In this document: piece by piece, positions 1 to 18,932 of the stretch
How positions within the stretch are numbered: position 1 is the first letter of the stretch
Layout of the letters: every line of letters starts with the position of its first letter
The notes under the pieces: model-generated
Database searches by the model: none
The model's input: only the letters and a program-made list of their open reading frames with translations
What the model was told of the DNA's origin: nothing
Made by a program: the position numbers and the translations under genes
Source of the DNA: Candidatus Krumholzibacteriota bacterium
GTDB taxonomy: Bacteria > Krumholzibacteriota > Krumholzibacteriia > Krumholzibacteriales > Krumholzibacteriaceae
Length of the DNA: 19,016 bases
Assembly (NCBI GenBank): GCA_016932415.1
Contig: JAFGCX010000012.1
Coordinates: 1-19,016 of the forward strand
Direction: 5' to 3'

Positions 1-2348
1 CAGCCAGGTACTCCACCATGATCGATAAATGAGTAAACTAATCCTTCCTTTGTAATGGATGAATTATTCAGTATTTCAACATCAGTACTCTCGTTGTTTA
101 AACGTGAAATTTCTAGATCTTTGATTTCAACCGGAGATGACAAAGTCCATGTGATTTTAATTGAACACCCCACTCTACTAATCGATGAGCTTTCTAAAAG
201 TGCAGCTACAATCTCTTCTGGAATAAGGAGGCAATATTCACTGCTATTTCCATGTCTATCAACAGCACAAAGCTTGTAGTATTGCCCATTTGTAGAAGAC
301 CATTCGTTGTCAAAGAAATATGATTGAACAGTAGAAGCAATTCGATTTTCAGAATTTGGCTCAAAACCATAGGAAGTCCCCCGGAATAATTCGTAATGAG
401 ACAGATCAGTTTCAGAATTAACATCCCAGGTGAGATTAAGCCCAGACGGATAAGATATTTGCTCTCCCTCAAAGCTTGTTGGTATGCTCGGAGGTAGGTT
501 ATCAACCGAATAACCACTATCAATTTGTGAAATGAAGAAGACACTAGGGACATCAGTGTGTGCAGTGACTACATAATCATTCCACTGGGCTCCGTATGCT
601 GTTGAGTCATTGTCTGTAGGTACAAGAAGACAATACTCAATGTCCTGTTTCGCTGAATGAAATCCTACGGATGCCCAATCACCAGGAGGAAACCCTAACG
701 CTGTCGCTTGCTCATAAGATAATGTAGGTTTATCTCTATTAAGTATTTCTTGTACATTCAGCGAAGACTTAAGAGTAATATTTGTATCATCTGACACATA
801 TTCACTAGATAACGCAGGTCCTATTCTCTTCCAAACATTGTACCCCGATATCGGATATTCATTTACATTTACCTGGTCATGGTCTGATCCTCTAAGATAG
901 ATTCTGAGAATCCCTCCTTCATCAGAGGGGTTATCATTGATTGATTCTATCGCTGGATCTACAATACCCCAGTATCCAGTAGCACCAAATTTTTGAATGT
1001 AAACATTTTCTTCAGTACTATAATCGATACTTGTATACCATGTCACATAAATACCATTGTCTTCTGTTGAAATTATTTTTGGATAATGAGCTCTTTCTTC
1101 TGTTCCGGAAATTGTTACACCATCAACAGCCCAGTATGGTTGTCCATCAGAATTGATTTTTTGAGTATACAGTGAATATATTCCGTCTCTTGAATCACGC
1201 CATACAACGATGCTATTCCCATCTCCATCATTAACGACTTGTGGGTCCTTTTGCTCTGCCACGTTGGTGCAAATGGGAATTCCATTAGTACTCCACAATG
1301 GAACACCTTGTCCATCGAACCTCTGCGCATAAATATCACCAGTTAAAGGGGCTTCTCTGGTATCACGCCAAACAACTACGACTCCATCATTTCCATCCAA
1401 GGCGATTACAGATTGATGCTGATTTGCTGTTATAGAACAACAGTCCACCTCCCAAAGTAATGTTCCAGCAGAATCTATTCTTGATGTATAAGTATCAAGA
1501 TCGCCCGTGACTCCGCCTCTGCTAGTTATGAATGCACCACCAGCTCCATCGGCAATTACCTTGTAATAATCTGAAGGCCATGAAAGTGGTATATAGAGAC
1601 CGTCCAGAGTCCACTGAATTTCACCATTTCCATTTACTTTTTGCCCATAAACAGCAGTTGTAGTTCTACTATCACTCCAAATAATAATCGCCCCACCATA
1701 ACCATCTGATACAATTTCGGGCTGGTTTACACGTGTTGCGACGGTGCATATTGGAATGCCATCTACTTCCCACTCTATATGACCATTAAAGCTTACTTTC
1801 TGAGCATAAATATGTCTTACCTCTGATCCTTCACGACGATCCCACCATGCTACTATTGCACCTCCACTGCCATCTTGAGTACAACTGAATCCAGAATCCA
1901 CATCTCCTTCGCTTGTACATATCGGTACACCATCAGATTGCCACTGAATTATTCCGTTTTTATCTATACGTTGAGCAAAAATATCCCAATGCCCGTTTCT
2001 ATAATCATTCCATACAATAATCGCTCCACCACTGTTATCATTGATTATTTGAGGATATCCTTGCCAGCCTTCCACGCTAGGACATATTGCAACTCCACCA
2101 TTTTGCCAATAAAAATTTCCCTCATGATCAATTCGCTGTGAATAAATATTTCCTACCCCGCTTCTTCCATCAGACCAGGCTAAATATGCTCCTCTAGCTC
2201 CATCGGCAACCAGAACTGGCATATCTTGCTGGCTTTCATCTTCAACTAAAAGGATTCCATAATCAATCCATCTAGCACTTGCTGATGAAACCAAGATTGA
2301 TAGGCAGAACAGAATTAAGGCACTATTCCAATAAGAGTTAATTTTCAT
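1..2348 (-). CDS. Exported propeller-repeat protein with fibronectin-like domains (3' end outside window)
   Basis: An uninterrupted minus-strand reading frame runs from an ATG at 2348 to the window edge, about 782 codons with no stop. The start is supported by a GGGGGAG ribosome site 3 nt upstream and a good promoter. Residues 1-26 form a signal peptide (short polar start, hydrophobic LILFCLSILV core, cleavage near SASA). Residues about 41-459 are eight tandem repeats of about 50 residues built on GGA-hhhhW-DxR, IYAQ-hhD and a G-x4-W-x3-G turn followed by IC, probably beta-propeller blades. Then come a domain with a GYNVWKR strand, a fibronectin-III-like segment (PPSIPTSF, LTWDVNSETDLSHYELFRG) and the start of another Ig-like domain cut by the edge. 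Proteins of this build in FCB bacteria usually end in a FlgD/type IX sorting domain, which would lie outside the window. A surface or secreted role is inferred; no enzyme motif is visible. Composition is AT-rich, unlike the genes right of 6100. Confidence 0.85.
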   Translation of the reverse strand, partial: MKINSYWNSALILFCLSILVSSASARWIDYGILLVEDESQQDMPVLVADGARGAYLAWSDGRSGVGNIYSQRIDHEGNFYWQNGGVAICPSVEGWQGYPQIINDNSGGAIIVWNDYRNGHWDIFAQRIDKNGIIQWQSDGVPICTSEGDVDSGFSCTQDGSGGAIVAWWDRREGSEVRHIYAQKVSFNGHIEWEVDGIPICTVATRVNQPEIVSDGYGGAIIIWSDSRTTTAVYGQKVNGNGEIQWTLDGLYIPLSWPSDYYKVIADGAGGAFITSRGGVTGDLDTYTSRIDSAGTLLWEVDCCSITANQHQSVIALDGNDGVVVVWRDTREAPLTGDIYAQRFDGQGVPLWSTNGIPICTNVAEQKDPQVVNDGDGNSIVVWRDSRDGIYSLYTQKINSDGQPYWAVDGVTISGTEERAHYPKIISTEDNGIYVTWYTSIDYSTEENVYIQKFGATGYWGIVDPAIESINDNPSDEGGILRIYLRGSDHDQVNVNEYPISGYNVWKRIGPALSSEYVSDDTNITLKSSLNVQEILNRDKPTLSYEQATALGFPPGDWASVGFHSAKQDIEYCLLVPTDNDSTAYGAQWNDYVVTAHTDVPSVFFISQIDSGYSVDNLPPSIPTSFEGEQISYPSGLNLTWDVNSETDLSHYELFRGTSYGFEPNSENRIASTVQSYFFDNEWSSTNGQYYKLCAVDRHGNSSEYCLLIPEEIVAALLESSSISRVGCSIKITWTLSSPVEIKDLEISRLNNESTDVEILNNSSITKEGLVYSFIDHGGVPG
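971..2228 (-). repeat. Eight tandem ~50-residue protein repeats within the exported propeller protein
   Basis: These are protein-level repeats with diverged DNA. The recurring pattern is (D/N)G-x-GGA-(hydrophobic)4-W-x-D-x-R, then (I/V)YAQ(R/K)hD, x-x-G-x-I-x-W and DG-h-P-IC. Copies 1, 2, 3, 4, 6 and 7 match well. Copy 5 lacks the W-x-D-x-R core and copy 8 is degenerate. Eight copies would suit an eight-bladed propeller, but the fold is inferred from the pattern only. Confidence 0.75.
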
Positions 2349-2379
2349 TGTCTCCCCCTAGTTAAACCGCGTGTTGCCC

Positions 2380-2408
2380 ATTGTATCAGAACCCAATCGC
2401 AGAATCAA
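2380..2408 (-). promoter_or_regulatory. Sigma70-type promoter for the propeller-repeat gene
   Basis: On the minus strand, TTGATT (2408-2403), a 17-nt spacer and TACAAT (2385-2380). The -10 box is preceded by TGA, giving an extended -10. The predicted transcript start is about 25 nt before the ATG at 2348, a normal leader length. Confidence 0.6.
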
Positions 2409-2584
2409 GTTAACCGTTAAAAATGTCCTATTTAGTAGTCATCTCGAAAGCATCATTTAAACGACTCATAAAGGGCATTATAAGGCTGTTCTAGGGCTTT
2501 GGGGAGAAACTTAGAGCTAAGATAAGGGTTAAAAAAATCGCAAATAACGGCAAATAAGGCGGTCGTTTTCAATAACTAGCCTGC

Positions 2585-2620
2585 TCCACCCCCTAGGGGC
2601 TAATCTGGGTCTGGCCCACC
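2585..2620. repeat. Dispersed 36-bp intergenic repeat, copy 1
   Basis: This matches 5747-5782 at 29 of 36 positions with no gap, in the same orientation. Invariant cores are TCCACCCCCT, then GGG, then AATCTGGG, followed by a C-rich end. Copy 1 contains the perfect palindrome CCCCTAGGGG, which copy 2 has lost. It lies about 40 bp after the stop codon of the 961-residue gene. Function is unknown. Confidence 0.6.
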
Positions 2621-2661
2621 CTTGCTTTACTCGAAGATCGATTGCAGATTCAGATTAACAA

Positions 2662-5547
2662 TTATCTCAGAAGAACCATTTTCTTCGATAGAGTCTCTTT
2701 CCCGGCTTTTAGTCTGTAAATATATATTCCTGAGCTAACAGAGCTGCCATTCAAATCCTTACCATTCCAATCGATTGAGTAAAAACCATTTTCCTGGGAA
2801 TCATTGACCAATGTCGCAATGTGTTTACCAGAAACATCAAATATCTGGAGCAGAACAGAGCATCTGCTCGGCAAAAAGTATTCAATCGTTGTTGTGGGAT
2901 TCAAAGGGTTGGGGAAATTTTGATATAACGTTGGTATATCTGTGTGTAGCGGCATATCAACATTATCCTCAGTTGTTGCACTCGCATATATACCAACAAT
3001 ACCACTCCCTGGAACTGAAAATGAAATAGAATTTAAAATGGTATCAAGAACGGTGTCGACAAATATGAATCTTGAATCATCGGAAAGCCAATATACATCA
3101 AGTTGATTCTCAGAAAATATGCCCGCTGCTAAAACATCTTCATTAGTGTATCGCATTTCGACTTCATAGCTGCCTAATTCCAATAGTGAATCTTCCATGA
3201 TAGCTGTGTAGTATAGATATCGACCTATTGGAACAGGACCATTATAGACCAGTGTATCTGGAACTATTTCGAAGTAGGTCGCTGACAAACTGATGGAATC
3301 TTCGTATGCTTCTTCCGAAATAAAACTAACAGAGAACATTCCATCCGGTGAATCCACAGTATATTCACCATTGACCAGTAACCCTGTCTCAGTTGCACAT
3401 GAATATACTGGATATAGATCACTTCCAGTTAATCCATTCTGGGTTGAAAGAAATGAACCGCAATTAGATTCTAAAGATACATGATAAGTTTTTAAGTTTT
3501 CATTCATCACCATTTCTAGCTCATCATTTTCACAAGCAGTATGGTTAATTCCATGAGATAGATAAGTAGCCGCAACTCTCTCAATTGGGATAATTGCAGA
3601 CCCCCAAATTGGAATTGTATACCATGGCATCGTAACATTATCAGGATCTACGTTAAACGCAAAGTCCCACAGGGACTTATCTTGATCACATGCAATCACC
3701 GTAACAAAATCCATTAGGCGCCCACCTGTTGCATGAGCCAAATCCATTGGGCTGTAATGTCCTTCTTTATTTTGTTCGGTTCTTAATGAAATGTAGCTAA
3801 TATCGTATACGGTTTTACCATGCGCTACAATATACAATCCACTAACGGATGGATCTTCAAGAAGAGTTGTCAATTCACCGATTGTTGGATCTTCAGCAAT
3901 TACGGTCTCCCACCCACGGTTCGAAAATAGTTCTTCAGCCTTCCAAAGCAAATCACCCATCATAAACGGATCCGTATTATTACTAGCATACCCTCTCACT
4001 AAAACTGCCTTGGGAGCAGGATTAGCAGCATTTGGCCACACGCTTACGGTTGCTGTCTGTTCATCTGAGCAACCTGTTTCATTTGTAATTTCAAGTCGAA
4101 CATCCCAACTAGCATCACAACCTGCAGGGTATGTATGCACAGGATTTTGAATTCTGCTTTTGTTACCATCACCAAAATCCCAATACCAAGATACGGGATC
4201 GCCTGTTGAAGTATCAAGAAATTGGACAACCGAGTTACCTGCTGGATTTTGTGAAACACTAAAATTTGCAATTAACTCTTGAAGAAACCAACATTCAAAC
4301 CAAAATGGGCCCCCTATAGAACCCACATAGCCGGAATAACCATTTTCTGACCAGCCATAAGCATACGCATGGCCACATGCATTTTGTTCAATATAAATAT
4401 CCTGATCGCAATCGTATAGATAAAATATTAATTGAGGTTCACAAATAACCTCTCCTCCCCAGGTGGTAGTCGCAATCCATGGTTTATAACATCTAGTTTG
4501 TTCAGAGTATGTACTCCAAACTACAGATAAAAAGTCTTCATTATGATTAGAAATGTCTAGACTTTGACAATGCTTATGAGAATGCGCAAACACCTCACTA
4601 TGGCAGGCTCCCACATCAATGAGCACGTCAATTTTATTCCCGTTTACAACAGCCCCTATTTTGTTTTCCATAGTAACGTATGAAACAGCCCAATTGCCAT
4701 TATCATCAATAGAAGCACATATATGGTTTTTTCGATTAAATGGAAATAAAGGCCCCGTGACATCTCTTCCATCAATTCCGTTGCTCACAACTACCGAATT
4801 AAGTCCAGTACTTGAAATAGCTCGTATTCTATTCAAGCTTGGTATATAAGCTCCCCTACTCTCTAACTCTCCCCATACTATTATATAATTACCGTTTCCG
4901 GATGCATCAACATCCATATCCCTAAAATAAATATTGGATCCATATTCCCTACTCGCGATCATTGTGGGACCCAATATTGATCCATCTGGTTCAATATATT
5001 TACATAGAAGGTCTATCGGTCCCTCAGTGACAATTCGTTCATAGACCATTATAGTATTTCCAATAGCATCGGTAGAATACCCATGTATATTATATCTCCC
5101 GTTGGGGACAATTGGTAAAGCAAAGGGTATTTCATCTGATACTGGCGATCCAAACTCATTATAGTATCTTATATATCTATTAAAGTCTTCTTCTTTAATA
5201 TAGACGACAATCACTATCCCAGCATCGTTGATGCCTACATAGCTTGGATAGGCATCACTAAAGGAAACATAGCCCGATGGGTAGGTTGAACCAGGGGAGT
5301 AGATAGAAATCAAACCTGTATAATTCTTACTTACCCCTCTCGCCATGAAGCCATTATCAGTTAATGAAAACAGCGGCTTCCTATAATTAGAATCATTATA
5401 GAAATGGCTCGAAATGGGACTGCAATCAGCATACAATTTTTGAGGTGATAGTAGTAACGTAAAAATAAATAATGCAATATGTACCATGCATAAAACACCA
5501 AAACGAGTTATTGGAGAGATATTATAACGATTCATCGTTAAAACCAT
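2662..5547 (-). CDS. Exported multidomain protein: PKD, caspase/CHAT-like domain, C-terminal sorting domain
   Basis: 961 residues. Residues about 15-40 are a signal peptide ending near LYA-DC. Residues 41-425 are beta-rich and not recognised, with many cysteines at 315-420. Residues about 426-503 are a PKD domain (WDFGDG at 456-461, HTYPAG at 471-476). Residues about 512-670 resemble a clan CD (caspase/CHAT/gingipain) core: strand KAVLVRGY, then GLYIVAHGK with H576, then DFVTVIAC with C620, the usual His-Gly and Cys positions at the ends of two core strands. Residues about 873-961 are a FlgD-like/type IX sorting domain (YQNFPNPLNPTTTIEY, then SSGIYIYRL and KKMVLL), which in FCB bacteria directs proteins to the cell surface. 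A secreted or surface peptidase is the inference; the domain could also be catalytically dead. The start may instead be the ATG at 5535; neither has a strong ribosome site. The gene is AT-rich and has its own promoter. Confidence 0.88.
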   Translation of the reverse strand: MVLTMNRYNISPITRFGVLCMVHIALFIFTLLLSPQKLYADCSPISSHFYNDSNYRKPLFSLTDNGFMARGVSKNYTGLISIYSPGSTYPSGYVSFSDAYPSYVGINDAGIVIVVYIKEEDFNRYIRYYNEFGSPVSDEIPFALPIVPNGRYNIHGYSTDAIGNTIMVYERIVTEGPIDLLCKYIEPDGSILGPTMIASREYGSNIYFRDMDVDASGNGNYIIVWGELESRGAYIPSLNRIRAISSTGLNSVVVSNGIDGRDVTGPLFPFNRKNHICASIDDNGNWAVSYVTMENKIGAVVNGNKIDVLIDVGACHSEVFAHSHKHCQSLDISNHNEDFLSVVWSTYSEQTRCYKPWIATTTWGGEVICEPQLIFYLYDCDQDIYIEQNACGHAYAYGWSENGYSGYVGSIGGPFWFECWFLQELIANFSVSQNPAGNSVVQFLDTSTGDPVSWYWDFGDGNKSRIQNPVHTYPAGCDASWDVRLEITNETGCSDEQTATVSVWPNAANPAPKAVLVRGYASNNTDPFMMGDLLWKAEELFSNRGWETVIAEDPTIGELTTLLEDPSVSGLYIVAHGKTVYDISYISLRTEQNKEGHYSPMDLAHATGGRLMDFVTVIACDQDKSLWDFAFNVDPDNVTMPWYTIPIWGSAIIPIERVAATYLSHGINHTACENDELEMVMNENLKTYHVSLESNCGSFLSTQNGLTGSDLYPVYSCATETGLLVNGEYTVDSPDGMFSVSFISEEAYEDSISLSATYFEIVPDTLVYNGPVPIGRYLYYTAIMEDSLLELGSYEVEMRYTNEDVLAAGIFSENQLDVYWLSDDSRFIFVDTVLDTILNSISFSVPGSGIVGIYASATTEDNVDMPLHTDIPTLYQNFPNPLNPTTTIEYFLPSRCSVLLQIFDVSGKHIATLVNDSQENGFYSIDWNGKDLNGSSVSSGIYIYRLKAGKETLSKKMVLLR

Positions 5548-5596
5548 CCTAGCGAAGGATTAATTAGTTTATACGCTTTAGGACTGAATACTGAGG

Positions 5597-5625
5597 AGCG
5601 TAGCAAAAGATATCGATTTTGTCAA
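5597..5625 (-). promoter_or_regulatory. Promoter with extended -10 for the caspase-like exported protein
   Basis: On the minus strand, a perfect TTGACA (5625-5620), a 17-nt spacer and TACGCT (5602-5597) preceded by TGC, which gives an extended -10. The predicted start lies about 40-55 nt upstream of the candidate ATGs at 5547 and 5535. Confidence 0.55.
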
Positions 5626-5746
5626 ATCGGCTAGATGTTTAAATATATGGAGAATTGTTCAGCACATTTAAATAAGGAAATTCCCTGAATCATATCTAAG
5701 CATTATCAGCTTTTGCAAGAGCTGTGAATTGATCATATATCTAGGA

Positions 5747-5782
5747 TCCACCCCCTTGGGCCGAATCTGGGCCTACCCCCCC
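5747..5782. repeat. Dispersed 36-bp intergenic repeat, copy 2
   Basis: The partner of 2585-2620, in the same orientation, with 29 of 36 positions identical. It lies 200 bp upstream of the caspase-like gene, so the two copies flank that gene as direct repeats about 3.16 kb apart. Confidence 0.6.
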
Positions 5783-5891
5783 TACATCACGCTCAATCTG
5801 CATGGTCAACCTTCACTAAAAAATTGATCCAGATTGCTTCCTAAATGGAGTAGCTAAGTAGAGGAACGAATTCAGTTGAAAGGACTTCTCT

Positions 5892-5912
5892 TGTTGACAT
5901 TATGTTGACATT
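5892..5912. repeat. Double 10-mer TGTTGACATT spaced by one base
   Basis: TGTTGACATT occurs at 5892-5901 and again at 5903-5912, a pitch of 11 bp (one helical turn), about 65 bp beyond the 3' end of tRNA-Pro. Each copy contains TTGACA, but no suitable -10 box follows on the plus strand. Protein-binding repeats, such as integrase arm-type sites, are possible but unproven. Confidence 0.45.
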
Positions 5913-5977
5913 TCTAAGGAGGAAAATCGGCCAACAAATCTTGGCTTGTGTAATTGCTTGTTTTATTAGAAGATATC

Positions 5978-6055
5978 TGGTCGGGGTGACTGGATTCGAA
6001 CCAGCGACTTCCTGCTCCCAAAGCAGGCGCGCTAACCGAACTGCGCTACACCCCG
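5978..6055 (-). tRNA. tRNA-Pro (anticodon TGG)
   Basis: 78 nt with CCA encoded. The acceptor stem pairs CGGGGTG with CACCCCG, the discriminator is A, and the C1:G72 pair is the one typical of bacterial tRNA-Pro. The D arm is GCGC/GCGC. The anticodon stem CCTGC/GCAGG encloses loop TTTGGGA, giving anticodon TGG. The T arm GCTGG/CCAGT encloses TTCGAAT. It lies 51 bp after the stop of the glycosyltransferase gene on the same strand. Its 3' end points into the AT-rich block to the left. Confidence 0.97.
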
Positions 6056-6068
6056 ACCCGAAGACAGG

Positions 6069-6095
6069 TCTATATATACAAAAAGCCGGGCTCAA
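6069..6095 (-). promoter_or_regulatory. Possible promoter for tRNA-Pro
   Basis: On the minus strand, TTGAGC (6095-6090), a short 15-nt spacer and TATAGA (6074-6069), ending 14 nt before the mature tRNA 5' end. The spacing is suboptimal. Read-through from the upstream glycosyltransferase gene is an alternative. Confidence 0.3.
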
Positions 6096-6106
6096 ATCAT
6101 AGCGAT

Positions 6107-7342
6107 TTATTTTTTCTTCGCCGCAGCGCTCACTTCTTCATAGAGACCGATGATCTGCTTGTAGTGCGCCGCCGGGCCGTAGAGATCTTCCGCCTTTTTC
6201 CTTCCCGCAGCCCCCATGCCGCGGCGCGCCTCCGGATCATCGATCATCCTGCCGAGGCACTCGCGCAGTTTCTCCGTGTCCCCCGCTGGAAAGAGAAGCC
6301 CGTTGACACCTTCCTCGACCATCTCCGGTATCCCCCCGATATCGGCAGCTACTACCGCCTTCCCGGCGGCAAGCGATTCCATCACCGAGAATGGAAGGTT
6401 CTCGTACCATCTCGACGGCACGACGACAAACTGCGACTCCTCGAGAAGGCGCCGAAGCTCGCTACCGGTGACAAAACCGAGGAATTCGACATCGGCGCCC
6501 TTTTCCTGGACATATCTCTTAAGCTCCCCGGAGAGCGGGCCCTCGCCGGCGATCTTGAGCTTTCCCTTTTTCAGGGAAGCGGCCGCGTCGATAAGCAGGT
6601 CGATCCCCTTTTCACGCGAAAGCCGCCCGAAATAGAGAAAATAATCTTTCTCCCTGCCCGTATCGAACGATTCCACGTCGACGAAATTCGGTATAGCTAT
6701 GATCTTTTCCCTGCTGATCTTTCCCTCGATCAGTTTCCCCATCAGGAACCGGCTCGGAGTGATGAACCTGTTTACTCTCGCCGGGACTCTCGACAGCCTG
6801 TCGTATAGGGTCGTCGCCATCGCGACGACGCTCGCCGGAAGACTCCCCTTCTTGCACCTGTGCGTCACGCAGTTGAGGTACCGCTTCGGGAGGCAGAGTT
6901 CGCATATCTCGTCCCCCCGGAGAAAGGTCGTGTTCGGGCAGACGAGGCGATAGTCGTGCAGCGTCCAGACGACCGGGATGTTTCTTCTTACGAGAGGCTG
7001 TATGATAGACGTCGTCAGGTGCCCGTGAATATTATGGAAATGGGCAAGATCTGGCCTTTTATCCTCGATCAGCTTCGTTATCTTCTCCCTCGCCTCCCTG
7101 CTGTAAACAGACCTGGAGACGACCCGAAGAGCCGCGGCGGGAGAGGAATCGGCAAGCAGGGATGGAAAATCGATCTCGCTGGTAAAATATTCCGAATATG
7201 GCGATTCGATGTTCTGCGGATGGCGCATGGCGAAATGGATCACCTCGTGTCCCTTTTCCTCGAGGAGCCTGGAGAGATTGAACATATACGTCGAATCGCC
7301 GCCCCTGTAATAGTGATATGTCTGGACCATCAGGATCCGCAT
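6107..7342 (-). CDS. GT4-family glycosyltransferase with cysteine cluster
   Basis: 411 residues from the ATG at 7342, chosen because GAGGGAG sits 7 nt upstream and MRILMVQTYHYYRGGDSTY is the usual GT-B beginning. A GTG 45 nt further upstream has no ribosome site. Family GT4 enzymes transfer a sugar from a nucleotide donor with retention, acting on the cytoplasmic side during glycan assembly. The N-terminal acceptor half carries GGDSTYM and HFHNIHGH. The C-terminal donor half carries LYFGRLSREKGIDLL, IAGEGPL and the E-x7-E pair E314/E322 (ENLPFSVME). Cysteines C135, C147, C150, C158 and C163, with a following HRCKKGS motif, mark a GT4 subgroup and could bind metal (inference). Donor and acceptor cannot be predicted. 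The gene is divergent from the beta-barrel gene and stops 51 bp before tRNA-Pro. Confidence 0.92.
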   Translation of the reverse strand: MRILMVQTYHYYRGGDSTYMFNLSRLLEEKGHEVIHFAMRHPQNIESPYSEYFTSEIDFPSLLADSSPAAALRVVSRSVYSREAREKITKLIEDKRPDLAHFHNIHGHLTTSIIQPLVRRNIPVVWTLHDYRLVCPNTTFLRGDEICELCLPKRYLNCVTHRCKKGSLPASVVAMATTLYDRLSRVPARVNRFITPSRFLMGKLIEGKISREKIIAIPNFVDVESFDTGREKDYFLYFGRLSREKGIDLLIDAAASLKKGKLKIAGEGPLSGELKRYVQEKGADVEFLGFVTGSELRRLLEESQFVVVPSRWYENLPFSVMESLAAGKAVVAADIGGIPEMVEEGVNGLLFPAGDTEKLRECLGRMIDDPEARRGMGAAGRKKAEDLYGPAAHYKQIIGLYEEVSAAAKKK

Positions 7343-7401
7343 CGACCGACTCCCTCGAAAAATTGCCGCCCCGCCGGGAAAACCCACGCCCGGGGTCTCT
7401 G

Positions 7402-7430
7402 AATCTACATCAATACGGCATTGATATCAA
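7402..7430 (-). promoter_or_regulatory. Promoter of the 6107-7342 glycosyltransferase with a palindrome in its spacer
   Basis: On the minus strand, TTGATA (7430-7425), a 17-nt spacer and TAGATT (7407-7402), with a predicted leader of about 50 nt. The inverted repeat ATCAAT-N5-ATTGAT occupies 7409-7425, almost exactly the spacer, where a bound regulator would block RNA polymerase. The promoter boxes are moderate; the operator role is inferred. Confidence 0.45.
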
Positions 7431-7473
7431 AGAAAATGAGCACCCGGAGCCGCCGGGGCGGCATATAAACAGC

Positions 7474-7502
7474 TTGACTATACCGCCTGCGTTTATTATA
7501 CA
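7474..7502 (+). promoter_or_regulatory. Strong sigma70-type promoter for the beta-barrel gene
   Basis: TTGACT (7474-7479), a 17-nt spacer and TATACA (7497-7502), five of six matches in each box with ideal spacing. The predicted start is near 7509-7510, about 40 nt before the coding start. A 6-bp-stem GC-rich inverted repeat (7449-7462) lies just upstream, between the divergent promoters. Confidence 0.75.
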
Positions 7503-7550
7503 AATTGTATATGACTATGATATTTATGGCGCTCTGAACGGAGGATGGCG

Positions 7551-8174
7551 TTGAGGGAAAAAAGCTTTATCTCGGGGGTTTCGCTCTTTCTGTTTTTCTG
7601 CCTTGCGCTGACAGGATCGGCTTTCGGCCAGGCGAATTCAGACAAGGCTGTTATTCATTTTGGCGCTTCGTATAACAAGGCTCTCGTCGATGATACAGGC
7701 AACGGTTTCTTCGGGCTTGATATCTACGCGGGAAAGATGATCACGAACTCTCTCTGCCTGGGATTCGGCGTCGGATACGACATCGTCCACTACGACACTC
7801 CGGCCGAAGAGCTTGGAAAAGACGATCCTTTCAAGGAAATGCTCTCTGTAATACCTTTCACGCTGAAGGCCAAATATTACTTCACTTTTTCACAGATGAT
7901 CCAGGCTTACGTCTCGGCGGGAAGCGGAGTATATCGCGCCGCTCCTTCACTTGCCGGACGGCCGATTCCATCTCCACCCGATGTGGGAGCGATCGGCCCG
8001 ATAGGAAGTTCAGTCAATTGTCCCGGAGGATCGATCGGTATCGGCCTCGACTACTGGTTCCTTCTGACGACCGGGATAGGGTTCGAGATCGAATATCATA
8101 TGTTCAAGGTCCCCGACAGGGACAGCTTCAGTTATTTTCAGGCCCGCGTGGATTATTCGCTGATCAAGTTCTAG
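7551..8174 (+). CDS. Small outer-membrane beta-barrel protein
   Basis: 207 residues from a TTG at 7551. I prefer this start because GGAGG (7540-7544) lies 6 nt before it, whereas the in-frame ATG at 7545 abuts GGAGG with no spacer; either gives nearly the same protein. A signal peptide (LFLFFCLALTGSAFG, cleavage after AFG or AFGQA) is followed by alternating beta strands: AVIHFGASYNKAL, FFGLDIYAGKMI, LCLGFGVGYDIV, FTLKAKYYFTF, QAYVSAGSGVY, SIGIGLDYWFL, GFEIEYHMF and YFQARVDYSLIKF. The protein ends in phenylalanine, the usual C-terminal barrel signal recognised by BamA. This suggests an eight-stranded OmpW/OmpA-type barrel, but the exact family and cargo are unknown. It is the only plus-strand protein gene in the window, a monocistronic unit with its own promoter and terminator. 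Confidence 0.85.
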   Translation: MREKSFISGVSLFLFFCLALTGSAFGQANSDKAVIHFGASYNKALVDDTGNGFFGLDIYAGKMITNSLCLGFGVGYDIVHYDTPAEELGKDDPFKEMLSVIPFTLKAKYYFTFSQMIQAYVSAGSGVYRAAPSLAGRPIPSPPDVGAIGPIGSSVNCPGGSIGIGLDYWFLLTTGIGFEIEYHMFKVPDRDSFSYFQARVDYSLIKF

Positions 8175-8202
8175 GCCGCGTTAATTATCAGATGAGATTG
8201 CG

Positions 8203-8233
8203 ATCCCCGCGGCAGCCGCCGCGGGGATTTTTT
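8203..8233 (+). terminator. Rho-independent terminator of the beta-barrel gene
   Basis: A perfect 10-bp stem (ATCCCCGCGG / CCGCGGGGAT) with a 6-nt loop is followed directly by a T6 run, 28 nt after the stop at 8174. The convergent prmC gene ends at 8258. Read from the other strand the stem has no T tract, so it mainly serves the plus strand. Confidence 0.92.
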
Positions 8234-8257
8234 ATGCTCCGGCCGACGGGTCTTCCC

Positions 8258-9109
8258 TTATTTCCGCACCGCGCTGAAGACCCTGATCTTGTCGCCGTCG
8301 CTGACGGTATTGATTTTTTCGTAAAATCCGCTCTTTTTGAACAACCTTGTCACTATCTTGTCCTGCCCCGCTCCGATCTCGAAGGCAAGCGCTCCCCCAG
8401 GCCTTAGATAAACGGGAGATTCAGCGAGAAGGCGCCTGAATATATCGATGCCATAGGCTCCGGCGTCGAGCGCTACGACCGGTTCAAAACCGGTTATACT
8501 GGAGTCGAGTTTCTCGAGCGAGCTGGTCGGTATGTACGGAGGGTTGCAGACTACAAGATCGACCTTTCCCTCGACACCTTCCCGATCTATCGGATCGAAA
8601 AGGTTTCCACAGAAGAGCTTCACTTTTTCTCCCACGCCGAATCTCTCGACATTGCGCGCGGCGACATCGACAGCTTCCCGGCTTATATCAGAAGCCAGTA
8701 TCTTCGCGTTCGACGTGTGAAGAGCCAGCGACACCGCGATATTGCCGCTGCCCGTTCCGATCTCCACCACGATGATCTCCGGCTTTTCAATCTGCATCTC
8801 CCCGATCAGGGCGAGACATCTTTTCGTAAGCATCTCTGTCTCCGCCCTCGGGATCAGGGCGCCCGGAGCGCAATGGAAATTGACTCCCATGAACGGAGCC
8901 TCTCCAAGGATATACTCGATCGGCTTTCCCTCTTTCCTCATCTCCACAAGCTGGTCTATCGTCACTCCCGATTTCTCGAGAAAACCGGGAGAAGCATCGG
9001 CGAGCTTTCCGCCAGACGCGATATCGGCTATCCTGATGATCTCCCTGACCGGATCTTCGAACCCTTCATCCCTGAGACGCTGGTAGATCTTGATCAGCCA
9101 TGAATACAT
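8258..9109 (-). CDS. prmC: Peptide chain release factor N5-glutamine methyltransferase
   Basis: 283 residues, the normal PrmC length. PrmC uses S-adenosylmethionine to methylate the glutamine of the GGQ motif in release factors RF1 and RF2, in the cytoplasm, raising termination efficiency. An N-terminal helical domain (about 1-80) precedes the Rossmann methyltransferase core. The SAM-binding motif is VEIGTGSGNIAVSLA (E116 onward). The family-defining NPPY sits at 189-192, followed by the EPVVALDAG segment. The ATG at 9109 has GGGAG 7 nt upstream. The gene follows a glycosyltransferase gene by 21 bp on the same strand, so it is probably cotranscribed. The usual neighbour prfA is absent from this window. 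Confidence 0.96.
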   Translation of the reverse strand: MYSWLIKIYQRLRDEGFEDPVREIIRIADIASGGKLADASPGFLEKSGVTIDQLVEMRKEGKPIEYILGEAPFMGVNFHCAPGALIPRAETEMLTKRCLALIGEMQIEKPEIIVVEIGTGSGNIAVSLALHTSNAKILASDISREAVDVAARNVERFGVGEKVKLFCGNLFDPIDREGVEGKVDLVVCNPPYIPTSSLEKLDSSITGFEPVVALDAGAYGIDIFRRLLAESPVYLRPGGALAFEIGAGQDKIVTRLFKKSGFYEKINTVSDGDKIRVFSAVRK

Positions 9110-9130
9110 ATCGACGCTCCCTGCCGCCTG

Positions 9131-10228
9131 TCAGGCTTTATTACCCATCGCCATATATAGTTCGTGATATTGCCTGGCGATCGCTTCCCAGCTGTGGTCA
9201 GCTTTCACCTTTTCGAGAGCTTTTGCTCCCTTTTTGCGGGCCTCTTCCGGATGCAGGAGAACATATTCAAGTTTTTCCGCCAGATCAGCAGGATCTGAGA
9301 CCCTGAAAGAATATCCTATACCCGCCGCGACCGCTTCGTTCTCCGGAATGTCGCTGTAGACCGTCGGCGTACCGTAAGCGAGCCCCTCGAGCAAGGCGAT
9401 CGACATAGCCTCGTACTCCGATGGGAAGATGAATACCCTCGCGTGGGCGTACAGCGCGAAGAATTCGTCTCCCCTGAGAAATCCCGTGAATATTACATTG
9501 CCGGGAGCTTCCTTCCTCAGCTGCTCGAAATATTCGTGATCGGTCGCTTCACCCCCTCCCGCTATTACAAGCGGGATATCGGTGCCGAGGATCCTGTACC
9601 CTTCCATCAATGTGGAAAGCCCCTTCGTCTTCTCTATCCTTCCTGCCGAGCAGAAAAAGAACTCCGCCTCATTTAGAGACCACTTCTCAAGGCAGGATGG
9701 ATCGGGCTTTTCCCTTATCTCGATCCCGTTGGGAATATGGATCACATCGCTCTGGTACCTGAGATTATAATAATCAGCCAGTGGTTTAGATACGGAGGTC
9801 CTCACCTTCGGGATCCTGATGAAAGCCTTTTCCGCGAGCTTCGAAAGGGTCTTTGGCAGGGGGCCCCATTTTTTCCTTATGTATGCCTGCCCGTGGGAAG
9901 TAGCGATCACTCCGAACCTCGAACGCGGCAGACAGGCGAGGATAGCGGGGTCGACGCTGTGGATGTGGATTATGTCAAAATCCTCCCGGCGGGTCTTCAT
10001 CGAGGCGTTCCACATATGGGATATCATCTCAAGCGCTTTCCTCCTGCTGCCTGGGACCGGTATCACCCTGGCGCCGCGATAATCGCCGGCGCCGCTGCAA
10101 TAGGAATCATATCCGTAAACGGTGATCTCGTGGCCGAGCTTCGACAGGTGGGGAAGCAGTGAATCGACGACGACCTCCACTCCATGCCGGCCGGGGACCC
10201 CTTTTATGCCGAGGATCGCGATCTTCAT
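9131..10228 (-). CDS. GT4-family glycosyltransferase
   Basis: 365 residues from the ATG at 10228. GGAG sits 7 nt upstream; the adjacent TTG at 10231 would leave only 4 nt. This is a retaining GT-B glycosyltransferase. The acceptor-side domain begins MKIAILGIKGVPGRHGVEVV, with IIHIHSVDPA at about 86-95 and SHGQAYIRK at about 111-119. The donor-side domain has CSAGRIEKTKGL, VIAGGGEA and the E-x7-E pair E273/E281 (EAMSIALLE). The GIKGVPGRHGVEVVVD opening resembles rhamnosyl/glucosyl-type GT4 enzymes of polysaccharide synthesis, but the sugar is not predictable. It starts 18 bp after the radical SAM gene stop and ends 21 bp before prmC, so the three genes look cotranscribed. Confidence 0.92.
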   Translation of the reverse strand: MKIAILGIKGVPGRHGVEVVVDSLLPHLSKLGHEITVYGYDSYCSGAGDYRGARVIPVPGSRRKALEMISHMWNASMKTRREDFDIIHIHSVDPAILACLPRSRFGVIATSHGQAYIRKKWGPLPKTLSKLAEKAFIRIPKVRTSVSKPLADYYNLRYQSDVIHIPNGIEIREKPDPSCLEKWSLNEAEFFFCSAGRIEKTKGLSTLMEGYRILGTDIPLVIAGGGEATDHEYFEQLRKEAPGNVIFTGFLRGDEFFALYAHARVFIFPSEYEAMSIALLEGLAYGTPTVYSDIPENEAVAAGIGYSFRVSDPADLAEKLEYVLLHPEEARKKGAKALEKVKADHSWEAIARQYHELYMAMGNKA

Positions 10229-10245
10229 CAATCGACTCCGGTTAT

Positions 10246-11241
10246 CTACTCAAGGGATGCCGGTTTTCCCTGCATCACCCTCAGTTTGTTTCTGGCGACC
10301 CATAATATCGGCTTCAGGGGGTTTCGTCTCATCGCCGGAACGGCCGTTCCGGTCATCCAGCAGTTGCGCTTGCACGAGGCGACTTTCTTTCTTACTTCCT
10401 CGGCCTGCCTGCTGTTCCATATCTCTTCGAACGATTGCGTCTTCAGGTCTCCCATCACCCATGGTTCGAACGACCCGTTGCATGCGAGGACCCGTCCCCA
10501 TGGATCAAGGAAGAAAGTATCTGTTCCCGCGTTGCATGGTATCGGCCTTGTCTTTCCCTGCACATGCCCTAGAAGCCCGAGGTTGAGATAAGCCCTGAAC
10601 CAGTCTTTCACCCTTTTTTTGAGCTTCGCTCTTGGAGAGGAAAGAAGCGCCTCGATAAACTGGCGCATCGATTCCTCGACCTCGCTCCTGTTCTCGATCC
10701 TGTTGTCTTCCTTAAAGAAATAGAACGAATTGTGTACGACGGCGTTTGCGAATTCGACCCCCATCGAGGCGACGAGCGAATAGAGGTCGAGCAGGTCGCG
10801 GCAGTTGTCCCCCGAGATCGTCATGGCGAACCCCACGTCTTTCAGGCCGAGCTGCTTGAGCCTCAGCACCGCCCTCAAAGCCCTGTCGAACCCATCCTCT
10901 ATTCCGCGAAGCCTGTCGTTGAGAGCGGGAAGCCCTTCGATGCTGACCCGTATCGTTATATCGTGAAAATCCTTCGCTATATCGATGATCCTGTCATAGA
11001 AGAATCCGTTGGTGCTGATCTCGAGCCTCTCCGATTTCGTGTCTAGGATCTCTACGATCCGGTGTATATCGCCGCGGATCATCGGCTCGCCGCCGGTAAT
11101 ATTCAGCCGCTGCATGCCGCCGGGGATCTTGTTGAGGATCTCCGGGTCGAACTCTTCGGAAGCCCTGCTCGGATTCTGCCAGGCGTTGCACATCTGGCAT
11201 CTCGCGTTGCACCTGTACGTAGTTATGATCGCGCATTCCAT
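10246..11241 (-). CDS. Radical SAM / SPASM-type protein
   Basis: 331 residues from the ATG at 11241; a GTG at 11295 would add 18 residues but has no ribosome site and an unconserved-looking extension. The 4Fe-4S/SAM-binding motif CNARCQMC gives cysteines C11, C15 and C18 near the N-terminus, as usual. NITGGEP is the SAM-contacting GGE motif, and ISTNGF and IRVSIEG are further TIM-barrel strands. The C-terminal part has spaced cysteines (CNAGTDTFF, then LACNGSFEPW, then SCKRNC) typical of a SPASM auxiliary-cluster domain. Such enzymes modify peptides (RiPP maturases, anaerobic sulfatase-maturing enzymes) or act in glycan and lipid pathways. The glycosyltransferase 18 bp downstream favours a glycan context, but the substrate is unknown. 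Confidence 0.9.
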   Translation of the reverse strand: MECAIITTYRCNARCQMCNAWQNPSRASEEFDPEILNKIPGGMQRLNITGGEPMIRGDIHRIVEILDTKSERLEISTNGFFYDRIIDIAKDFHDITIRVSIEGLPALNDRLRGIEDGFDRALRAVLRLKQLGLKDVGFAMTISGDNCRDLLDLYSLVASMGVEFANAVVHNSFYFFKEDNRIENRSEVEESMRQFIEALLSSPRAKLKKRVKDWFRAYLNLGLLGHVQGKTRPIPCNAGTDTFFLDPWGRVLACNGSFEPWVMGDLKTQSFEEIWNSRQAEEVRKKVASCKRNCWMTGTAVPAMRRNPLKPILWVARNKLRVMQGKPASLE

Positions 11242-11365
11242 CGCGGTTTCCGCGCCCTTTTCCGGCAGTATTCCCGCGTGACAGGCAGATGTCACCGCGG
11301 GGGATGCCTGTAAATACCTTTTTGCCGGGCTCTCGCCGCCTCTCCGGCGCCACGGCCCGGCCGGT

Positions 11366-11443
11366 CTATGCGTACCCTCCCGTTAAAAACCTAGCAATAT
11401 TTATGACAATCGCCGCCGGGCCCTTCCCTGCCATCTTGCTCAC
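11366..11443 (-). CDS. Possible 25-residue peptide between ABC permease and radical SAM gene
   Basis: A GTG overlaps the permease stop as GTGA and opens a 25-codon frame ending in TAG at 11366. The upstream AGGAG lies only 3 nt away; an internal ATG at 11434 is an alternative start. The peptide is small and mostly hydrophobic, contains AAIVINIARFL and ends TGGYA. It has no cysteine and no obvious signal peptide. A RiPP precursor is conceivable because a radical SAM/SPASM gene follows. A chance frame is at least as likely. Confidence 0.2.
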   Translation of the reverse strand: MSKMAGKGPAAIVINIARFLTGGYA

Positions 11444-12708
11444 GCTCTCCTCATCCATTTGAAGATCTCCCTGACATCGGGGCGTTTTCCATACATCAGT
11501 ATCCCGATCCTGAATATCTTCGCCGAGATCAATGCTGATATATAAATACTCCCTATCATTATAAGGATGCTGAGGACGATCTGCCAGGCGGGAGGAGTAA
11601 GAATATTTATCCTCATGAACATGACGATAGGGGCGAACAGCGGTATCATGCTGAGCACCGTTGCGAACAATCCGTCGGGGGTCTGAATTATCATCATCGG
11701 TATGATGATCGTAAAAACGAGGCAGAGGACTATCGGTTGCTGAAGCTGCTGGGCCTCCTGGTCGGTATTGCACACCGACCCGACCCCGGCGAACATCGTC
11801 GCGTAGAAAAAGAACCCGAGAAGATAAAACACGATAAAATATCCGAGGGTCGCGGGCGAGAGACTCGCGGCGACTTCGGCGACCGGGCCTCCGAGGCTCA
11901 GGCCGTAGAGCGCCAGGGCGATGGCGCACGTCACCCAGATCAGGTACTGCGTCAAGCCTACGGCGCCGACTCCGATGATCTTGCCTATAAGAAGATCGAT
12001 CGGCCTCAGCGATGACAGCATCACTTCGATGACCCTGTTGTTCTTCTCTTCTATTACGCTTCTCTGCACGGCGATCCCCCACATCAGGATCGACATGTAG
12101 AGCATCATGATAAAGACCATCGTCGACATGAAGATCGAATCGAACCCCTTGCCCGTCTCTTCCTGTCCTTCCTTGACCTGGATCATCTCGATCTTTACTT
12201 CCCTGACGAGCTTGCCGACGATATCGTACCGAAGTCCCTCCCTTTTCAACCTCTCGCTTATCACCACGTTGTCTATGACTGATTCGAACTTTTCCATCGT
12301 CTTGAGGTTGCCGAGCCTTTTGCCGAAAAACGTCGCTTTGCTTTCGCTTATCACATCGCTCGGAAGGATGAGGTACCCGTCGATCGCGTCGCTTTCGATC
12401 TCCTGGTTCAATCCTTTTTTGATGCTTTCGATCTCCAACCCGTTGCTTTTGATCTCCCGCAGCCTGTATTTCGCGCTTCCGTCGGAGAGTGTGTCGGTGA
12501 GTGCCGATTCAAGTTCGCCGTATATCACTCCGCTCTGGTCGATGACGGCGATCTTGACCTCTGTCTCCGGAGTGAATTTCATGAACATCATCGGCGCGAA
12601 AATTATCCCTCCCATAAGGAGGGGGCCGAGTATCGTTCCGATCAGAAAGCTCTTTTTCTTCACTCTTTCGAGGTATTCCCTCTTGATTACCTTAAGCATC
12701 TTGTTCAT
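11440..12708 (-). CDS. ABC-2 type transporter permease (NatB-like)
   Basis: 422 residues from the ATG at 12708 (MNKMLKVIKREYLERV). I chose it over the GTG pair at 12720 because the family starts with this cytoplasmic helix and GGTGAG lies just upstream. A first membrane segment (about 22-45, LIGTILGPLLMGGIIFAPMMF) is followed by a long extracytoplasmic region to about residue 200. A cluster of membrane spans fills the C-terminal half (FIMMLYMSILMWG, GVGAVGLTQYLIW, YFIVFYLLGFFFY, PIVLCLVFTIIIP, IVLSILIMIGSIY). The VIEEKNNRVIEVMLSS motif before the core is typical of NatB/YhaP-type ABC-2 permeases. It overlaps the ATPase gene by 17 bp, implying translational coupling; together they form an export complex of unknown substrate (sodium export is only a family analogy). 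Confidence 0.93.
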   Translation of the reverse strand: MNKMLKVIKREYLERVKKKSFLIGTILGPLLMGGIIFAPMMFMKFTPETEVKIAVIDQSGVIYGELESALTDTLSDGSAKYRLREIKSNGLEIESIKKGLNQEIESDAIDGYLILPSDVISESKATFFGKRLGNLKTMEKFESVIDNVVISERLKREGLRYDIVGKLVREVKIEMIQVKEGQEETGKGFDSIFMSTMVFIMMLYMSILMWGIAVQRSVIEEKNNRVIEVMLSSLRPIDLLIGKIIGVGAVGLTQYLIWVTCAIALALYGLSLGGPVAEVAASLSPATLGYFIVFYLLGFFFYATMFAGVGSVCNTDQEAQQLQQPIVLCLVFTIIIPMMIIQTPDGLFATVLSMIPLFAPIVMFMRINILTPPAWQIVLSILIMIGSIYISALISAKIFRIGILMYGKRPDVREIFKWMRRA

Positions 12709-13609
12709 CGAGCTCACCACCCCTCTCCTTGACTTTCATTATGAAAATATCGTGCAGGGATATCTCCCCTATCTCATACTTCACGACCTGCCCGTTTTCC
12801 ACCGCGAAACCGAGTATCCTGTTCGGATCGGCTCCGTCCTTCAGATTCAGGGTCAGGTCCTGGCCGAATTCGGCGATCTTCTCGACATCGGGGTGCTTTT
12901 CCAGAAGGTTCTTATCTCCGGAAAATCTCATTGAGACCATATTCTTGCTGAACTTCATCTTGATATCGCTCAACCTGCCTTCGAGCACCTTTCTGCCCTT
13001 GTTAATAAGGCATATCCTCTCGCACAGTTTCTCGACCTGGTCCATCAGGTGGGTCGAAAGGACGACTGTCCTGCCGTCGTTCTTCATGCTGATTATGATA
13101 TCCTTGAGGATCTGCGTGTTGATCGGATCGAGCCCCGAGAACGGTTCATCGAGTATCACGAGCTGCGGATCGTGAAGTATAGTCGATATGAACTGGATCT
13201 TCTGCTGCATCCCTTTTGAAAGCGATTCGACCGTCTTGTCGCTCCATTCGCCCAGTTCGACCTTTTCAAGCCATTCGTTCGCCCTTTTTTCAGCTATCGA
13301 TCTTTTGATCCCCTTTATCTCTCCGAGAAAGATGAGGTGGTCCAGGACTTTCATCTTTCTGTACATCCCTCTTTCCTCAGGAAGATACCCGATCTTTTCT
13401 TTCGCTTTTTCGTTAAGGGGGGCGTCGAAAAGGTTGATCTTTCCTTCATCGGGCTGGATGATATTCATTATCATCCTTATCGTCGTCGTTTTTCCCGCTC
13501 CGTTCGGGCCAAGAAGCCCGTATATCCCCCCCGGTTCTATCAGAAGCGAAAGATCGTCGACCGCGGTATGCCCGTCGTACCTCTTTGTGACATTCTCTAT
13601 CGAAAGCAA
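12692..13609 (-). CDS. ABC transporter ATP-binding protein (NatA-like)
   Basis: 305 residues from a TTG at 13609 with GGAGG 7 nt upstream. It hydrolyses ATP to drive the adjacent permease at the inner membrane. Walker A is GPNGAGKT (34-41). The Q-loop region reads GYLPEERGMY (74-83), with Glu where many ABC proteins have Gln, as is common in the NatA/YhaQ group. The signature is LSKGMQQ (130-136), Walker B LVILDE (150-155), then the D-loop SGLD and switch histidine VLSTH. A C-terminal extension of about 80 residues, also typical of this group, follows the ATPase core. A 125-bp gap from rdgB carries an inverted repeat, so the pair probably has separate regulation. Confidence 0.95.
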   Translation of the reverse strand: MLSIENVTKRYDGHTAVDDLSLLIEPGGIYGLLGPNGAGKTTTIRMIMNIIQPDEGKINLFDAPLNEKAKEKIGYLPEERGMYRKMKVLDHLIFLGEIKGIKRSIAEKRANEWLEKVELGEWSDKTVESLSKGMQQKIQFISTILHDPQLVILDEPFSGLDPINTQILKDIIISMKNDGRTVVLSTHLMDQVEKLCERICLINKGRKVLEGRLSDIKMKFSKNMVSMRFSGDKNLLEKHPDVEKIAEFGQDLTLNLKDGADPNRILGFAVENGQVVKYEIGEISLHDIFIMKVKERGGELDEQDA

Positions 13610-13643
13610 AATCTCTCCTCCCTCTCTCTGTTTGACTCTGCCC

Positions 13644-13671
13644 GTATCTGCCCTTCCATCCCGGCAGATAC
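13644..13671. promoter_or_regulatory. Perfect 9+9 bp inverted repeat upstream of the ABC transporter genes
   Basis: GTATCTGCC-N10-GGCAGATAC, a perfect dyad with about two helical turns between half-site centres. It lies 35 bp before the ATPase start. On the minus strand it directly follows a TATATATA run that could act as a -10 box, although no good -35 is seen. There is no T tract, so it is not a terminator. An operator or a leader hairpin is the likely role (inference). Confidence 0.5.
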
Positions 13672-13734
13672 CGATATATATACAACAGTCGATATTCTTT
13701 ATTCGATATCTTCCCTGACGATGGAAAGATCTTT

Positions 13735-14361
13735 TTATTCGCCGTCCCGCTTCTCCCCGCCCTGGAGACCGAATTCGATAAGCCCCTTCATCTCTATCAG
13801 CGCCCTGTACCTGTGGCTGATCCTGTTCTTCCTCTCCGGCCCGATCTCAGCAGCCGTCATCCCCTCGGCGGGGATAAGAAAGACGGGGTCGTACCCGAAC
13901 CCGTTCGAACCTGCCGGTTCGGCGGCGATCATGCCCTCGAGTATCCCTTCGGTCACCAGCACCCTGTCATTCGTCCCCGGAGCGGGATAAAGGACCATCA
14001 CGCATCTGAACCTCGCCGATCTCTCGCTGCCGGTCTTTCCTTCGAGCTCTCCGAGAAGAAGCCTTGAACGCTCTTCGTCGCTCAGTCCCTCTCCTCCGTA
14101 GCGCGCCGACTCTATCCCAGGCCTGAGGCCAAGGGCATCGACCTCGATCCCCGAATCGTCAGCAAGGGCTGGCAGGCCTGTAGCGGCGTGCGCGGCCTTT
14201 GCTTTTATCAGCGCGTTTTCATAAAAGCTCTTTCCATCCTCCGCCGGCGCCTCGAAAGGAGGAAAATCCTCGAGGGATACGAGCTCGACATCGGTATCTG
14301 AGAGGATCGAGCGGATCTCCCTGATCTTTCCAACGTTCCTTGTCCCGACTACTATTTTCAT
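13735..14361 (-). CDS. rdgB: XTP/dITP diphosphatase (non-canonical purine NTP pyrophosphatase)
   Basis: 208 residues from the ATG at 14361, which overlaps the rph stop as TGATG; the longer upstream frame is rph read out of phase. The enzyme hydrolyses ITP, dITP and XTP to monophosphate and pyrophosphate in the cytoplasm, keeping deaminated purines out of DNA and RNA. Family motifs are GTRNVGK (6-12), the DDSGIEVDAL segment with the catalytic acidic residues, GIESARYGGE, AGSNGFGYDPVF and ISHRYRAL near the C-terminus. Length is normal. The rph-rdgB pairing is found in many bacteria and the 1-base overlap implies coupled translation. Confidence 0.96.
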   Translation of the reverse strand: MKIVVGTRNVGKIREIRSILSDTDVELVSLEDFPPFEAPAEDGKSFYENALIKAKAAHAATGLPALADDSGIEVDALGLRPGIESARYGGEGLSDEERSRLLLGELEGKTGSERSARFRCVMVLYPAPGTNDRVLVTEGILEGMIAAEPAGSNGFGYDPVFLIPAEGMTAAEIGPERKNRISHRYRALIEMKGLIEFGLQGGEKRDGE

Positions 14362-15918: not shown

Positions 15919-15928
15919 CTGCCGGCGA

Positions 15929-16480: not shown

Positions 16481-16570
16481 GATATCTCTTGCCTTTCACC
16501 GAGGGTCACACCGTGATACCTGTCTTCGCTGACGATGCTATTCGCCTCTGTCCCCGCTCAAGGGAAACGA

Positions 16571-18166: not shown

Positions 18167-18178
18167 AGCAGCCTCAGC

Positions 18179-18637
18179 CTACCTTTCACGATTCTTGTCT
18201 TTCAGCGCCCTTGCCAGTTCTCTTTTAGCGTCCCTGTCGGCGATAGTACGCCTTTTATCGTAAGCCCTTTTCCCCTTGGCCAGCCCGATCTCCACCTTTA
18301 TCCTTCCCGCATCGTTGAAATATATCTTCAGGGGGACGATCGTAAGCCCTTTTTCTCTTGTCTTGCCGAGCAGGCGCTTGATCTCCTTGGCATGCATGAG
18401 CAGTTTTCTCGTCCTGGTCGGCTCATGATTGTACCGGTTGCCCTGTTTATACGGACTGATATGCGCGTTGAAAAGAAATATTTCCTCGTTTTCGATCGAA
18501 GCGTACGAATCCTTCAGATGAGCGCTTCCCGCCCTTAGAGACTTGACTTCCGTACCGGTCAGGACGACGCCCGCTTCCATCGTCTCGATGATAGTGTAAT
18601 CATGCCTCGCCTTCCTGTTCGTGCAAACGATCTTCAT
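18179..18637 (-). CDS. smpB: SsrA-binding protein
   Basis: 152 residues from the ATG at 18637. The open frame extends 47 codons further upstream, but that part is compositionally unlike SmpB, and the family starts at the segment [11 protein letters not shown]. SmpB binds tmRNA and brings it to stalled ribosomes for trans-translation. Family motifs are [51 protein letters not shown] and the basic C-terminal tail [18 protein letters not shown], which folds into the decoding centre. It is the first gene of the large minus-strand run. No ssrA tmRNA gene is visible in the window. Confidence 0.97.
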
Positions 18638-18907: not shown

Positions 18908-18932
18908 AATTATCTGAAATTATTATGACTAT

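What the first reader, a model, noticed from the sequence alone, without database searches (positions are those of the whole stretch)
3536..4016. Caspase/CHAT-like (clan CD) domain inside an exported, sorting-domain-tagged protein
Seen: residues about 512-670 of the 961-residue protein show a strand ending His-Gly (GLYIVAHGK, H576) and, 44 residues later, a strand ending Ala-Cys (DFVTVIAC, C620). Known: clan CD peptidases (caspases, CHAT, gingipain C25, clostripain C11) carry the catalytic His in an HG motif and the Cys after a hydrophobic strand in this order. Inference: a secreted or surface cysteine peptidase joined to a PKD domain and a FlgD/type IX-like C-terminal domain. I do not recognise this exact architecture. 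Gingipains are the closest functional analogy, but sequence similarity is not evident by eye.
Basis: partly seen in the sequence, partly recalled or inferred. Interest (0 to 1): 0.72.

Follow-up and report, generated by a model that had tools for sequence, protein, structure and literature searches.

The report
Rare caspase-like domain in exported protein
A bacterium from a little-known group makes a secreted protein carrying what is probably a very divergent, caspase-fold protein-cutting domain; it matches no catalogued family, but secreted enzymes of this general kind (gingipain relatives) are already common in the same bacteria, so it is a modest novelty.

Summary
Window 2662-5547 (- strand) encodes a 961-aa protein with H576 in VAHG and C620 ending VTVIAC, at the stated coordinates. 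The protein has a signal peptide, an N-terminal propeller-like region, a PKD domain, this orphan domain (about 510-717), a beta-sandwich and a type IX secretion (T9SS) sorting tail. The genome encodes the T9SS translocon SprA, so the tail is meaningful. No Pfam, NCBIfam, PHROGs or PDB-sequence match covers the orphan domain. One homologue was found, in another family of the same class, with the same PKD-domain-sandwich order (domain 23% identical). H576 is the only conserved histidine of six; G577 and C620 are conserved too. A single-sequence AlphaFold model gives the caspase core order, and Foldseek ranks 44 caspase chains first (E 6.7e-6), with C620 at the catalytic Cys. A second model with the homologue added was weak (best caspase E 0.09). 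All four cysteines of the domain are conserved, so a structural role for C620 is not excluded. Verdict: a T9SS-exported protein with a probable divergent clan CD (caspase-like) cysteine peptidase domain, not detectably a C25 gingipain. Peptidase activity is inferred, not shown.

The parts
2662..5547 (-). gene of the 961-aa exported protein (M5, codon 5533-5535, may be the true start: AGGATGG lies 8 nt before it)
   Evidence: for the upstream sequence
5425..5547 (-). signal peptide, about residues 1-41 (by eye: hydrophobic core, LYA/DC)
   Evidence: sequence read directly; no predictor available
4282..5415 (-). N-terminal region, about residues 45-422, with repeated 'D..GN.I.VW' blocks that look like a beta-propeller; no family match
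   Evidence: inference from the repeats
4039..4263 (-). PKD domain, residues 429-503
   Evidence: PF18911 48 bits, E 1.3e-12 over 441-503
3655..4014 (-). caspase/haemoglobinase-like core, residues 512-631: beta1, alpha1, beta2, alpha2, beta3(HG), hairpin, alpha3, beta4(Cys)
   Evidence: AlphaFold model m6dca050e8f56 and Foldseek/VIA matches to caspases; conserved in L027
3820..3822 (-). H576, proposed catalytic His (VAHG)
   Evidence: only conserved His of six in the domain
3688..3690 (-). C620, proposed catalytic Cys (VTVIAC)
   Evidence: conserved; aligned with the catalytic Cys of caspases-1, -2, -3, -6 and -11 (range ends)
3397..3654 (-). rest of the orphan domain, residues 632-717, with conserved C672, C696, C717; fold unresolved
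   Evidence: mean pLDDT mostly under 40 in both models
2947..3396 (-). beta-sandwich, residues 718-867, conserved with the homologue (30%)
2665..2937 (-). T9SS type A sorting domain (FlgD-Ig-like), residues 871-961
   Evidence: TIGR04183 39.9 bits, cut-off 23; PF18962 and PF13860; 74 matches in the own genome, nearly all to this tail

Best explanation
The gene encodes a T9SS cargo: Sec signal peptide, passage through the outer membrane directed by the C-terminal tail, then release or anchoring at the surface. Its central domain is a highly divergent clan CD (caspase/gingipain-fold) cysteine peptidase. C620 at the end of beta4 attacks the peptide bond and H576 at the end of beta3 assists. The PKD and N-terminal propeller-like regions are accessory binding or spacer modules, and the beta-sandwich follows the catalytic domain as the Ig-like domain does in gingipains. 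Shown: sequence, domain matches, presence of SprA, conservation of both residues in one homologue. Inferred: the fold (predicted only, and unresolved beyond the first four strands), catalysis, substrate, surface anchoring.
For: Dyad order, HG glycine and Cys conserved in the only homologue, with H576 the only conserved His. AlphaFold single-sequence model: strands end at H576 (model 68-76) and C620 (model 115-120), with a hairpin between, as in caspases. Foldseek: ranks 1-44 all caspases (E from 6.7e-6, prob 1.00) and SAVED-CHAT at rank 45. VIA alignments with caspases-1, -2, -3, -6 and -11 end, in many rows, at model residue 120 = C620 against chain residues 285, 320, 163, 163 and 254, their catalytic Cys (residue identities from general knowledge). 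Clan CD definition with dyad at the ends of beta3 and beta4 and a Gly beside the His: PMC4357240. T9SS tail and SprA (471 bits, cut-off 200) in the same genome.
Against: Model confidence is moderate to low (mean pLDDT 46.7; about 48-59 around the dyad). VIA Z of 7-7.5 for caspases is matched by CheY-like and corrinoid-binding folds. The two-row model gives caspase hits only at E 0.09. All four Cys of the domain are conserved, allowing a disulfide role for C620. The domain is the least conserved part (23%, PKD 38%, sandwich 30%), unusual for a working enzyme beside accessory domains. No match to any clan CD profile.
Confidence: 0.55

Rival explanations
1. Caspase-like fold without peptidase activity: a pseudo-enzyme or binding domain in a surface protein that kept the fold and, by descent, the His and Cys.
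For: Fast divergence of the domain relative to PKD and sandwich; beta5, beta6 and S1 pocket not recognisable. Bacterial pseudo-orthocaspases are described (PMC6426788 abstract).
Against: Pseudo-variants usually lose the dyad; here both residues are kept at 23% identity while the other five His are not.
Confidence: 0.15
2. Another Rossmann-like or flavodoxin-like alpha/beta domain whose HG and Cys are coincidental; C620 is one of four structural cysteines forming disulfides in an exported protein.
For: All four Cys conserved, an even number; HG-Cys pattern in 1.75% of shuffles; VIA rows with AerR, TadZ, corrinoid-binding and lumazine synthase folds score as high as caspases; the second model does not favour caspases.
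Confidence: 0.2
3. A divergent member of peptidase family C25 (gingipain), shortened so that only the catalytic subdomain remains.
For: C25 cargo is common in this class (78 of 78 genomes, 5 in the own genome); hhalign places HG on HG and Cys on Cys (E 0.095); the homologue reads VGHG, as C25 does.
Against: PF01364 does not match; HMMER with a local C25 profile gives no positive score; the hhalign score is reached by 15 of 200 shuffles; PKD sits where the first alpha/beta subdomain would be.
Confidence: 0.1

Closest known systems
Peptidase family C25 (gingipains; PF01364), T9SS cargo
   Same: exported with a T9SS tail, His-Gly then Cys, beta-sandwich domain after the putative catalytic domain
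   Different: no profile match, domain about 200 aa against 374, PKD instead of a first alpha/beta subdomain
Caspases (family C14A)
   Same: predicted core order and position of His and Cys; best Foldseek matches
   Different: no sequence similarity detected, extracellular, bacterial, no p10-like half recognised
CHAT domain, SAVED-CHAT (PDB 8tl0)
   Same: Foldseek rank 45, E 3e-4
   Different: CHAT of that system is an intracellular defence protease; no CHAT profile match here
Homologue in G030 (L027/L056, 1336 aa)
   Same: PKD, orphan domain with HG and Cys, beta-sandwich, T9SS tail in the same order
   Different: different N-terminus; FG-GAP and ASPIC/UnbV repeats between sandwich and tail

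Membership tests
Clan CD (caspase/haemoglobinase fold) cysteine peptidases | His then Cys in sequence, with Gly beside the His | tested here: met
   H576-G577 and C620, conserved in the homologue; definition from PMC4357240
Clan CD (caspase/haemoglobinase fold) cysteine peptidases | Minimal core beta1-beta4 with alpha1-alpha3, dyad at the ends of beta3 and beta4 | tested here: inconclusive
   present in model m6dca050e8f56 with Foldseek E 6.7e-6 to caspases, but moderate pLDDT and not strengthened by the second model; distance not measurable
Clan CD (caspase/haemoglobinase fold) cysteine peptidases | Six-stranded sheet including beta5, beta6 and S1 pocket | tested here: inconclusive
   residues 621-717 have mean pLDDT mostly under 40 in both models
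Clan CD (caspase/haemoglobinase fold) cysteine peptidases | Cysteine peptidase activity | not testable with these tools
   needs a biochemical assay
Peptidase family C25 | Match to PF01364 | tested here: not met
   no match up to E 10; local C25 HMM gives no positive score
Peptidase family C25 | Two alpha/beta subdomains before the Ig-like domain | tested here: not met
   PKD at 441-503 directly precedes the single domain
C14, C11, C13, CHAT sequence families | Match to the family's profile | tested here: not met
   no Pfam or NCBIfam match to the domain up to E 10; the only PADLOC row is a weak, unrelated M28B match, E 0.026
T9SS cargo, type A tail | Signal peptide, C-terminal sorting domain, T9SS translocon in the genome | tested here: met
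   TIGR04183 above cut-off, SprA above cut-off, signal peptide by eye

The most novel reading that the evidence does not exclude
A new, very rare family of clan CD peptidases secreted by T9SS, with a PKD-peptidase-beta-sandwich module that has moved between unrelated N- and C-terminal partners and that no public family describes.
Probability: 0.42. Interest if true: 0.45.

Novelty: new variant of a known kind. Interest (0 to 1): 0.36.

Why it matters
If active, it would be a peptidase family of the caspase fold that sequence profiles do not see, carried by a T9SS cargo outside the well-studied organisms. That would suggest that annotated C25 peptidases undercount the exported clan CD enzymes in these bacteria. 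It would not change any general principle, since gingipain-type T9SS peptidases are well known and abundant in the same genomes.

Tried and rejected
Close-relative scans of viral, genome, phage and plasmid collections with the domain, and profile scans of viral and genome collections, found no relative. Weak genome hits L023, L024 and L025 (E 0.06-0.6) are chance: L023 lies on a membrane protein, L024 on the opposite strand of another gene, L025 covers only the N-terminal edge in a 76-aa frame with a stop. Profile searches of 387, 386 and 388 genomes (partly overlapping) gave only the known pair plus two weak partial rows; the two searches around other centres returned nothing, without a positive control in those sets. 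Searches covered one genome each and say nothing. hhalign against 14 local C25 sequences aligned HG and Cys but 15 of 200 column shuffles scored as well. The viral structure library gave no match below E 0.001. The neighbouring 782-aa protein is not a detectable relative. A 17-nt inverted match between 4005-4021 and the tRNA-Pro anticodon arm was judged to be chance. One search used a rough made-up string, not a real sequence, and is not used as evidence.

Full report
OBSERVATION. The 961-aa protein is read from window 2662-5547 on the minus strand. H576 is in GLYIVAHGK and C620 in DFVTVIACDQD, 44 residues apart, at the stated coordinates. In 20,000 shuffles of the protein, 1.75% contain a comparable hydrophobic-HG to hydrophobic-Cys pattern, so the motif alone is weak evidence.

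ARCHITECTURE. Pfam and NCBIfam find PKD (441-503) and the T9SS sorting / FlgD-Ig tail (878-958), both above cut-off, and nothing for 510-867. PHROGs, PADLOC and PDB sequences add nothing of use for the orphan domain. The genome has 74 places matching this protein, nearly all to its tail, and encodes SprA, the T9SS translocon, at 471 bits against a cut-off of 200. The tail is therefore very probably a working export address (inference). C25 peptidases, the gingipain family, occur in all 78 genomes of the class that were searched, five in this one, but this domain is not among them.

HOMOLOGUE. Searching PKD, the domain and the sandwich together across the 80 held genomes of the class gave one homologue beyond PKD alone, G030:C146 (E 3.4e-37, 29% identity over query positions 7-433). 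It is a 1336-aa protein with a different N-terminus, FG-GAP and ASPIC/UnbV repeats, and a T9SS tail. Identity is 38% in PKD, 23% in the orphan domain and 30% in the sandwich. H576, G577 and C620 are identical in both; of six aligned histidines only H576 is conserved; all four cysteines (620, 672, 696, 717) are conserved. The His-Cys spacing is 44 and 41. Profile scans of further genome sets (partly overlapping) found no third member, and the named-genome collection gave none. The sharing of a PKD-domain-sandwich block between proteins with unlike flanks suggests a mobile module (inference).

FOLD. A single-sequence AlphaFold model of residues 501-741 has block-mean pLDDT of roughly 50-80 over most of its first 120 residues and the order beta1, alpha1, beta2, alpha2, beta3 (ending at H576), hairpin, alpha3, beta4 (ending at C620). 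Foldseek against the PDB ranks caspases 1 to 44 (E from 6.7e-6, prob 1.00), then SAVED-CHAT. In many VIA alignments with caspases-1, -2, -3, -6 and -11 the aligned range ends at model residue 120 (C620) and at the catalytic Cys of the caspase. Caution is due. VIA Z of about 7 is also reached by unrelated alpha/beta folds. The second model, built on two rows and 357 residues, is poor between residues 574 and 716 and finds caspases only at E 0.09, prob 0.95. It still ends one strand at residue 574, two residues before H576, and one at C620. Residues 621-717 are unresolved in both. The sandwich at 718-867 resembles C-terminal beta-sandwiches of glycoside hydrolases at Z up to 8.8, a common arrangement.

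MECHANISM. By the published definition, clan CD enzymes share a six-stranded sheet with His and Cys at the ends of beta3 and beta4 and a Gly beside the His (PMC4357240). The sequence-level part of this is met; the structural part is predicted, not shown. The most likely reading is an exported cysteine peptidase using H576 and C620, with PKD and the N-terminal region for binding or spacing. The main rivals are a non-catalytic caspase-like domain, and a different alpha/beta fold in which C620 is one of four disulfide cysteines.

MEMBERSHIP. C25 membership fails on profile match and on domain make-up; an hhalign comparison with local C25 proteins aligned the dyads but was not clearly better than shuffles. 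C14, C11, C13 and CHAT profiles do not match either. The domain can be said to look like clan CD; it cannot be filed in any existing family.

VERDICT. The thing is a rare, divergent variant of a known kind: T9SS-exported, probably caspase-fold, possibly a peptidase.

Noticed in passing
window 1-5970 against 6060-19016: GC is 39.5% on one side and 53.6% on the other side of the tRNA-Pro gene (5978-6055, -); both large exported-protein genes lie on the low-GC side, downstream of the tRNA 3' end, as in a tRNA-adjacent genomic island. No repeat of the tRNA end was found in the contig and no integrase was seen, and the contig ends at base 1.
   Followed up: partly
window 3-2348 (-): A second exported protein, 782 aa and cut by the contig end, with repeats of the form 'DG.GG.I..W.D.R' like a beta-propeller; no family above cut-off.
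   Followed up: partly
L056 2121-3698 and 3722-5362 (G030): Next to the homologue lie an ankyrin-repeat protein and a BlaR1/M56-like membrane peptidase by eye; neither was checked against a library.
   Followed up: no
window 5533-5547: The start codon may be the second ATG (M5): AGGATGG lies 8 nt upstream of it, while the first ATG has no well-spaced ribosome-binding site.
   Followed up: no
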